DNA of 64,000 nucleotides from Deltaproteobacteria bacterium (GTDB lineage Bacteria; Myxococcota_A; UBA9042; DTJE01). The notes under the pieces were generated by a model. It worked only from the letters and a program-made list of their open reading frames with translations, did no database searches and was not told where the DNA came from. Positions 21,713 to 23,299 of this stretch are shown one piece after another. Every line of letters starts with the position of its first letter. The first letter of the stretch is position 1. The translations under genes were made by a program, and so were the position numbers. The stretch lies in contig JAKPOP010000001.1 in assembly GCA_029547805.1 (NCBI GenBank), positions 124,001 to 188,000 on the forward strand, in the 5' to 3' direction.

Positions 21713-21741
21713 ATTGTCCGGGAGCGGCCGTTGCGGGTCAA
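21713..21741 (-). promoter_or_regulatory. promoter for FG-GAP lipoprotein
   Basis: Reading the minus strand, TTGACC (21741-21736), 17 bases, GACAAT (21718-21713). The -35 overlaps the stop codon of the last EutN gene, which suggests the lipoprotein is transcribed independently of the EutN operon. Confidence 0.65.
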
Positions 21742-22034
21742 GAAAACCGTCCGCCCGGGGACGAGGTTCCGTCCAGGATCTGCACGATGGCCGCGTCGGC
21801 CAGCACGTCCCGGGATCGGGCCTCCAGGGCGTTCCGGGCCCCACTTCCAAAGGCGACGACCACCGGGTCTCCCGGTCCCGCGTCGAGGGCATCGGCGGCC
21901 ACGACGACCCGGCCGGTGAAGGCCTCGCCCTGGTCCGTCGCCCGGACCTCGGCCACCAGCAGCCATTTTCGGCCGGCCATCCGGGGATGCCTCCGGGTGG
22001 CCCAGACCTCCCCGATCACCCGCCCTCGGGTCAT
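21738..22034 (-). CDS. EutN/CcmL-type microcompartment vertex protein 3 (BMC-P)
   Basis: This 98-residue protein is the third of three tandem BMC-P paralogues. It opens TRGRVIGEVWATRRHPRMAGRKWLLV, the typical EutN/CcmL beta-strand start, and has VVAADALDAGPGDPVVVAFGSGARNAL, the pocket-side GSxAR motif. BMC-P proteins form pentamers that close icosahedral shell vertices. Its start overlaps the previous stop by 4 bases (TCAT on the plus strand), so it is translationally coupled. It is the shortest of the three. No BMC-H or BMC-T gene is in the window. Confidence 0.88.
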   Translation of the reverse strand: MTRGRVIGEVWATRRHPRMAGRKWLLVAEVRATDQGEAFTGRVVVAADALDAGPGDPVVVAFGSGARNALEARSRDVLADAAIVQILDGTSSPGGRFS

Positions 22035-22372
22035 GGGACCTCCTCGAGGCCTTCGGGCCTCCGGTCCTCGGGGAACCGGAAGAAGGGGCTGGCCGAGGCG
22101 GCCCGGGACAGGGAGACCCGATCGACGATGGCCGCCACCGAGGCCTCCACCGGGTGACGCGTGTCGCCCAGGGCCTGTCGGGCCGGGAGCCCCATGCAGA
22201 CCACCACGTCCTGGCCCACCTCGGCCCCCACGGGGTCCACGGCCACCAGATGGTCCGTCGGGTGGTCCGGGCCGTACCAGCACAGGGGGCGGACGATCAG
22301 CAGCTTCTGCCGCTCCAGGCGCCGGTGCTTCCGGGTGGCCCAGACCTGTCCGACCACTCGGCCCAGGATCAT
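22031..22372 (-). CDS. EutN/CcmL-type microcompartment vertex protein 2 (BMC-P)
   Basis: This 113-residue protein is the closest of the three to canonical CcmL/EutN: MILGRVVGQVWATRKHRRLERQKLLIVRPL, then LVAVDPVGAEVGQDVVVCMGLPARQALGD and VEASVAAIVD. A 25-residue tail after the core (SLSRAASASPFFRFPEDRR) is not part of the usual pentamer fold and could bind a partner. It overlaps its neighbours by 4 bases on both sides. A shell-pentamer role follows from the family, but without hexamer genes nearby the assembly is unclear. Confidence 0.92.
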   Translation of the reverse strand: MILGRVVGQVWATRKHRRLERQKLLIVRPLCWYGPDHPTDHLVAVDPVGAEVGQDVVVCMGLPARQALGDTRHPVEASVAAIVDRVSLSRAASASPFFRFPEDRRPEGLEEVP

Positions 22373-22701
22373 CTTGCGCCTCCCGTTCCCGAGGGGTCCA
22401 GGAAGGCCTCGTCGACGATGGCCACCACGACGTTCTTGGTCGGGACCTCGGGTCCCAGGGTCAGGTCCCGGACGCGGCTTCCGACGGCCACCAGCACGAG
22501 TTGTCCCGCATCGGACCCCAGGGCATCGACGGCCAGCAGCGTCGCCGGCTGGAGGTGATCGTCCCGGCAGTCGGCGCCGATCGCCTCCCCCTGGGTGGCG
22601 TGGCCCAGGCCCAGGCGCCGGACCTCCAGGACCCGACGGCCCCCGAGGGCAGGCGACTGCCGGGCGCCCCAGACCGGTCCGATCACCCGGGCCAGGATCA
22701 T
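22369..22701 (-). CDS. EutN/CcmL-type microcompartment vertex protein 1 (BMC-P)
   Basis: This 110-residue protein starts MILARVIGPVWGARQSPALGGRRVLEV and continues LLAVDALGSDAGQLVLVAVGSRVRDLTLG, then VVVAIVDEAFLD. It is the first of the three EutN paralogues in the operon. The three differ mainly in the loop after the first strand pair (residues 30-50), which faces the pentamer pore or edge, so they may form hetero-oligomers or have distinct partners. It overlaps the DUF2505 gene by 4 bases. Confidence 0.9.
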   Translation of the reverse strand: MILARVIGPVWGARQSPALGGRRVLEVRRLGLGHATQGEAIGADCRDDHLQPATLLAVDALGSDAGQLVLVAVGSRVRDLTLGPEVPTKNVVVAIVDEAFLDPSGTGGAR

Positions 22702-23216
22702 CGTTGCCCCCGGGCGAGATCGGCCAGATGACCCGAGAGGGCCCGGGCCTCCTCGTCCACGATCTCCTTGGCGTAGGCGAAGATGAGCCGCTCGGCCAGC
22801 GATCCCAGCAGGAAGACCTCGACCCGGAGTTCCCCGGACAGGATGCGTCGGGTCCGGCCCGGCCCCAGGGGCACGAACTCGATCGTGCCCTTGTTCTTCA
22901 GCAGGTCCGCGACCCGGGACGTCGAGGGCACGTTGACGTAATGCGCCGCGCCGGTGTCCAGGCGGACCTCCGACTCTTCGACCCACTCCATCCAGCGGGG
23001 TTCGACCTTCTTGGGACCCACGGAGGCGATCTTGGGGACGGGCAGGTAGCGAACCCGGCGCCGGACCACCCCGTTCTTCTCCTCCCAGGAGAGGGTCTCG
23101 GCTTCGAGGATCGTGGTCATCCGGGGCTTCAGGGTCTCGATGATCCCGTTGCGGAACATCTCCCGGAGCAGGGTCGGCTGGTCGCACGGGAACTCGTGCT
23201 CGAGGCGGTACTTCAT
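22698..23216 (-). CDS. DUF2505 / START-like domain protein
   Basis: This 172-residue protein resembles DUF2505, a relative of the polyketide-cyclase/START lipid-binding fold. It begins KYRLEHEFPCDQPTLLREMF, has a central RYLPVPKIASVGPKKVEPRWMEWVEESEVRLDTG, and ends in the long helix expected of the fold (ERLIFAYAKEIVDEEARAL). It heads the EutN operon, so it may bind a hydrophobic ligand for that system. This is inference. The ATG at 23216 is preferred: everything upstream lies within the leader and promoter. Confidence 0.75.
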   Translation of the reverse strand: MKYRLEHEFPCDQPTLLREMFRNGIIETLKPRMTTILEAETLSWEEKNGVVRRRVRYLPVPKIASVGPKKVEPRWMEWVEESEVRLDTGAAHYVNVPSTSRVADLLKNKGTIEFVPLGPGRTRRILSGELRVEVFLLGSLAERLIFAYAKEIVDEEARALSGHLADLARGQR

Positions 23217-23269
23217 GAAGGATCCCCCTTGCCAGGCTGCCGGCAGGCGGTTGCCCCGACGGCGGGGTG

Positions 23270-23299
23270 ATGATACCGTCGGCGGCGTTGTCGTGGCAA
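23270..23299 (-). promoter_or_regulatory. promoter for the DUF2505-EutN operon
   Basis: Minus strand: TTGCCA (23299-23294), 18 bases, TATCAT (23275-23270). The predicted start near 23263 leaves about 46 bases of leader before the DUF2505 ATG. Confidence 0.6.

What the first reader, a model, noticed from the sequence alone, without database searches (positions are those of the whole stretch)
21738..23299. DUF2505 gene with three tandem EutN/CcmL pentamer genes and no visible hexamer shell genes
Four genes overlap by 4 bases each (ATGA type), so they are translated as a unit. Three are BMC-P paralogues and the first is a START-like DUF2505 protein. BMC-P proteins normally cap the vertices of microcompartments built from BMC-H and BMC-T proteins, none of which are here, and no signature enzyme is either. 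The set could be a satellite shell locus, or a shell-free pentamer system in which three different BMC-P chains form hetero-pentamers around the lipid-binding-like protein.
Basis: partly seen in the sequence, partly recalled or inferred. Interest (0 to 1): 0.75.

Follow-up and report, generated by a model that had tools for sequence, protein, structure and literature searches.

The report
Second vertex-protein set of a microcompartment
The four genes are real, but the missing shell genes are elsewhere in the same genome: three of the four belong to an extra, conserved set of four vertex-type proteins that certain myxobacteria carry beside the usual three, linked to two proteins of unknown role that look like microcompartment cargo.

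Summary
Confirmed: a START-like gene (weak DUF2505) and three PF03319 (BMC-P) genes overlap by ATGA at 23216..21738, minus strand. Not supported: the shell-free reading. The genome (G000) holds BMC-H, several BMC-T, an acylating aldehyde dehydrogenase, EutB/EutL, a class II aldolase and four more BMC-P: a scattered, Haliangium ochraceum (HO)-type microcompartment.

It is not an ordinary split locus either. The canonical BMC-P triplet is complete elsewhere. The window's P1-P2-P3 plus a P4 on another contig form a separate clade (support 99/95) marked by Trp11 (92 of 95 sequences; 0 of 58 canonical). In other Myxococcota families they lie as P1-P2-P3-P4 in fixed order, often followed by an ACT-domain protein and DUF711; one relative has START-P1-P2-P3-P4-ACT-DUF711 in a row, and the window's family has split it. 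Myxococcota genomes mostly carry 3 or 7 BMC-P, and 24 of 26 DUF711 genomes have the larger number. The ACT protein has an N-terminal domain resembling those of EutQ, PduM and TIGR02536, and a helix like an encapsulation peptide. The START gene also occurs without microcompartments, so it is peripheral.

Best reading: an accessory vertex-plus-cargo satellite of an HO-type compartment. Pentamers, cargo role and chemistry are inferred.

The parts
22698..23216 (-). START/DUF2505-like helix-grip protein, 172 aa; first gene of the operon, peripheral to the module
   Evidence: orthologues in genomes without microcompartments
22369..22701 (-). BMC-P paralogue P1 (Trp11 clade), 110 aa
   Evidence: PF03319 55.0 bits; clade P1, 100/99 support; invariant GSRxRD motif
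22031..22372 (-). BMC-P paralogue P2 (Trp11 clade), 113 aa
   Evidence: PF03319 84.3 bits; nearest solved chain 5v74, a shell BMC-P; clade P2, 97/94
21738..22034 (-). BMC-P paralogue P3 (Trp11 clade), 98 aa
   Evidence: PF03319 74.0 bits; clade P3, 100/95

Best explanation
The four genes are one half of a split satellite locus of an HO-type bacterial microcompartment. P1, P2 and P3 are three members of a second, four-member BMC-P set (P1-P4) that exists beside the canonical three BMC-P of the same organelle. The fourth member, an ACT-domain protein and DUF711 (UPF0210) lie together on another contig. The likely working is that P1-P4 form alternative or additional vertex caps for the BMC-H/BMC-T shell encoded elsewhere, and that the ACT protein, through its N-terminal domain and amphipathic helix, is carried to the shell or lumen together with DUF711. 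The START-like protein was joined upstream in this order and is probably only co-expressed. Shown: gene content, overlaps, clades, fixed gene order, co-occurrence. Inferred: pentamer formation, incorporation in the shell, cargo role of ACT/DUF711. Unknown: the reaction.
For: Shell and enzymes in the same genome: BMC-H and BMC-T; acylating AldDh, PduT-like and CcmP-like BMC-T, EutB, EutL, RnfC/PduS-like protein and class II aldolase. Seven BMC-P in the genome. P1-P4 are one side of a 99/95 branch, away from the canonical triplet and six solved BMC-P; each of the four is its own clade. Trp at position 11 in 92 of 95 P1-P4 (two gaps, one Gly), 0 of 58 canonical and 0 of 6 solved. P1-P2-P3-P4 in fixed order in 14 loci outside the window's family; START-P1-P2-P3-P4-ACT-DUF711 contiguous in G013. 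Myxococcota genomes mostly carry 3 or 7 BMC-P. DUF711 in 26 of 379 genomes, 24 of them with the larger BMC-P number. The N-terminus of the ACT protein matches TIGR02536 (to 3.7e-6), PduM and EutQ families and nothing else in NCBIfam; a helix at residues 67-90 sits between low-confidence linkers. One 91%-complete genome (G364, apparently the same as G385) has BMC-H, BMC-T and AldDh in a main locus with no BMC-P, and its only BMC-P found are P1-P4.
Against: No direct evidence of assembly. Four extra paralogues exceed what 12 vertices need. Two genomes have DUF711 without the set (G129, G332) and one has the set without detected DUF711 (G364), so the link is not obligate. DUF711 also occurs in organisms outside Myxococcota, such as Lactococcus lactis and Methanocaldococcus (controls), so it has a life apart from this compartment. 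The helix's similarity to an encapsulation peptide is by pattern, and its hydrophobic moment (0.43-0.73) is in the range of the AldDh and EutC N-termini but is not specific.
Confidence: 0.7

Rival explanations
1. Shell-free system: three BMC-P chains form hetero-pentamers around the START-like lipid binder.
For: No BMC-H next to the operon; ATGA overlaps suggest co-translation.
Against: BMC-H/T in the same genome and BMC-H in 24 of the 27 genomes examined that hold the set; the other three (G009, G267, G379) still have BMC-T or EutL and are fragmentary, contaminated or small assemblies. In the f7 family the START gene is elsewhere, and genomes G209, G290 and G296 have START but no microcompartment gene.
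Confidence: 0.05
2. Ordinary split locus: the three genes are the canonical BMC-P triplet of an HO-type compartment moved away from the main locus.
For: HO type I compartments are known to keep two BMC-P in a satellite (PMC8217296).
Against: The canonical triplet is intact elsewhere (main-locus BMC-P at L015 10418-10708 and the pair at L016 9649-10235) and falls in other clades; P1-P4 are a separate clade.
Confidence: 0.04
3. P1-P4 keep the BMC-P fold but no longer sit at vertices: they form a pentameric adaptor or scaffold, possibly of mixed chains, that docks ACT/DUF711 onto the shell or controls assembly.
For: Always one of each and in fixed order; a clade-wide Trp11 absent from vertex proteins with solved structures; linkage to ACT-DUF711; Sutter et al. 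note that BMC-P multiplicity hints at an additional function (PMC8217296).
Against: P1, P2 and P4 keep the Gly-x-x-x-Arg and Ile-Val-Asp motifs of BMC-P and P3 close variants; in G364 they are the only BMC-P found beside a BMC-H main locus.
Confidence: 0.2

Closest known systems
HO-type microcompartment of Haliangium ochraceum and relatives (Sutter et al. 2021, PMC8217296)
   Same: AldDh, BMC-H, several BMC-T, BMC-P triplet split between a main locus and a satellite of two BMC-P plus aldolase, and a EUT-like module.
   Different: An extra four-member BMC-P set, with ACT and DUF711; the main text of the catalogue describes triplets only and does not mention DUF711 or ACT. Its supplements could not be read.
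BMC-P / EutN_CcmL family (PF03319)
   Same: Above the family cut-off; Gly-x-x-x-Arg and Ile-Val-Asp motifs kept.
   Different: Trp11 and a separate clade from the canonical members tested; P1 and P4 have longer insertions.
DUF2505 (PF10698), START/Bet v 1 superfamily
   Same: Helix-grip fold; nearest solved structures are TTHA0849, ZhuI aromatase/cyclase and the Ups1 lipid carrier.
   Different: The window copy is below the Pfam cut-off; I know of no microcompartment role for the family.
ACT-domain protein PRK00194 and UPF0210/DUF711 (solved structure 2ha9)
   Same: ACT domain hit to NF001220; DUF711 hit 1.7e-171 and 2e-148 to 2ha9.
   Different: The ACT protein here carries about 116 residues in front, including an EutQ/PduM/TIGR02536-like domain.

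Membership tests
BMC-P (PF03319) | Pfam model above curated cut-off | tested here: met
   55.0, 84.3 and 74.0 bits vs 25
BMC-P (PF03319) | Forms pentamers that cap shell vertices | not testable with these tools
   No multimer modelling or biochemistry available
HO-type microcompartment | BMC-H, BMC-T and acylating AldDh in a main locus | tested here: met
   L015: PF00936 and PF00171 hits, NF011927 633.9 bits
HO-type microcompartment | BMC-P triplet, two members with an aldolase in a satellite (type I) | tested here: met
   Main BMC-P in L015; two BMC-P and PF00596 aldolase in L016
HO-type microcompartment | EUT module (EutA/B/C and EutL) | tested here: inconclusive
   EutB and EutL found; EutC named by sequence only; EutA not found in the stretch read
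HO-type microcompartment | Main BMC-P groups with the H. ochraceum shell BMC-P (5v74) | tested here: met
   5v74 lies inside the main-locus BMC-P clade, 100/98; that 5v74 is the H. ochraceum shell protein is from my own knowledge
Canonical BMC-P triplet | P1-P3 fall in the clades of the triplet members | tested here: not met
   Separate 99/95 branch; Trp11 instead of Val
DUF2505 (PF10698) | Pfam model above curated cut-off | tested here: inconclusive
   23.8 vs 26.9 bits for the window copy; two orthologues at 32.0 and 29.7 pass
FRAG-type microcompartment | Shell genes scattered and remote from enzymes, no defined main locus | tested here: not met
   The main locus has its AldDh next to BMC-H, BMC-P and BMC-T genes

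The most novel reading that the evidence does not exclude
A previously undescribed class of BMC-P proteins, always four paralogues in fixed order, builds a mixed-chain or specialised vertex that recruits an ACT-DUF711 cargo, giving a subset of Myxococcota compartments a second kind of vertex and placing the uncharacterised UPF0210 family inside an organelle.
Probability: 0.3. Interest if true: 0.75.

Novelty: new variant of a known kind. Interest (0 to 1): 0.58.

Why it matters
Why many microcompartments encode several BMC-P when only 12 vertices exist is an open question stated in the 2021 catalogue (PMC8217296). Here is a clean natural contrast: related genomes with 3 or with 7 BMC-P, the extra four forming one clade and travelling with candidate cargo. 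It also gives a functional lead, association with an HO-type compartment, for DUF711/UPF0210, a widespread family with a solved structure and no known activity that I could find.

Tried and rejected
Shell-free reading: rejected. START as the core partner: rejected, since orthologues lie elsewhere in f7 genomes and occur without any microcompartment gene. Moved canonical triplet: rejected by the trees. PDB search with the START protein by sequence: no hit. NCBIfam on START: no hit. Papers on microcompartments with DUF711, BMC-P hetero-pentamers, or Myxococcota BMC-P: none in the library. The first quick tree did not resolve P1-P4 as one group; the mixture-model tree with added quartets did (vs 61). 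Upstream genes cl7 and cl10 found beside other quartets have no Pfam name.

Full report
Observation. The operon is as described: four minus-strand genes, START-like (23216-22698), P1 (22701-22369), P2 (22372-22031) and P3 (22034-21738), with ATGA at every junction. P1-P3 pass the PF03319 cut-off; the first protein is a weak DUF2505 match with a confident helix-grip model. The first gene starts at 23216, not 23299.

The genome has the shell. PF00936 matches in the same assembly lie on three other contigs. The main locus (L015) carries a PduT-like BMC-T, an acylating aldehyde dehydrogenase, a BMC-P, a BMC-H and a CcmP-like BMC-T. L016 has two BMC-P and a class II aldolase. L017 has an RnfC/PduS-like protein and a BMC-T. 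L018 has EutB and an EutL-EutT fusion. This matches the HO type in the published catalogue, including the split of two BMC-P plus aldolase into a satellite (PMC8217296).

But the window's genes are not the HO triplet. The genome has seven BMC-P. In a mixture-model tree of 94 sequences, the canonical triplet and six solved BMC-P fall on one side of a 99/95 branch; P1, P2, P3 and a fourth protein, P4 (L019 9975-10331, contig C9), fall on the other, each in its own clade. The alignment is short (91 columns), so relations among P1-P4 are unsure, and no sequences of carboxysomal CsoS4 or of most other catalogue types were in the tree. The branch is backed by one residue: position 11 is Trp in 92 of 95 P1-P4 and in none of 58 canonical or 6 solved sequences.

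The set is old and ordered. The START gene and BMC-P genes occur in all 14 genomes of the order, each with shell genes of its own. In G013, of another family, the row is START-P1-P2-P3-P4-ACT-DUF711. In family f7 it is P1-P2-P3-P4-ACT-DUF711 with START elsewhere.

Co-occurrence. In 379 Myxococcota genomes, most BMC-P-bearing ones have three, and a minority have about seven. DUF711 occurs in 26 genomes, 24 of which have the larger number. Exceptions: G007 (contig ends inside the ACT gene), G364, G129 and G332. The set was read directly in most of these genomes but not in G264, G323 and G336, where only the count of seven is known. Genomes are related, so the counts are not independent; the set is seen in at least seven families.

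Candidate cargo. The ACT protein is about 116 residues longer than the NCBI family model PRK00194. Its first 45 residues match only microcompartment families in NCBIfam: TIGR02536 (3.7e-6 at best), PduM and EutQ, all well below those models' own cut-offs. Next comes a predicted helix (67-90) between low-confidence linkers, of the pattern of an encapsulation peptide. This makes ACT, and by linkage DUF711, likely compartment components; that is inference.

A natural deletion. In G385, apparently the same genome as G364 (same size, same four BMC-P, same best E-value; 91% complete), the main locus has CcmP-like BMC-T, BMC-H, AldDh and BMC-T but no BMC-P, and the only BMC-P found are P1-P4. If not an assembly gap, P1-P4 would be that shell's only vertex candidates.

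Mechanism. Most likely P1-P4 are an accessory vertex set of the HO-type compartment, co-inherited with an ACT-DUF711 cargo pair. Whether they form four homo-pentamers or mixed rings, when they are used, and what DUF711 does are open. The START-like protein is likely a passenger in this order: its orthologues occur beside other genes in f7 and in genomes without any microcompartment gene.

Noticed in passing
L018:9006-10319 (own genome, contig C3): EutL-type BMC-T fused to an EutT-type cobalamin adenosyltransferase domain in one 437-aa protein; reading frames of 428-479 aa for the EutL hit in many relatives, and sequences read in four of them, suggest the fusion is conserved.
   Followed up: partly
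L217:7875-9175, L215:1844-3302, L220, L222, L223, L224: Two conserved genes of no Pfam family (cl10, about 310-360 aa; cl7, about 116-162 aa) lie upstream of the P1-P4 set in other Myxococcota families.
   Followed up: partly
L286 (G385:C49): HO-type main locus with BMC-H, AldDh and two BMC-T but no BMC-P gene.
   Followed up: yes
L189-L191 (family f7): The START-like gene lies beside a gene that looks like lon, followed by one like clpX in two of the three, and not beside the BMC-P set (names by sequence reading).
   Followed up: no
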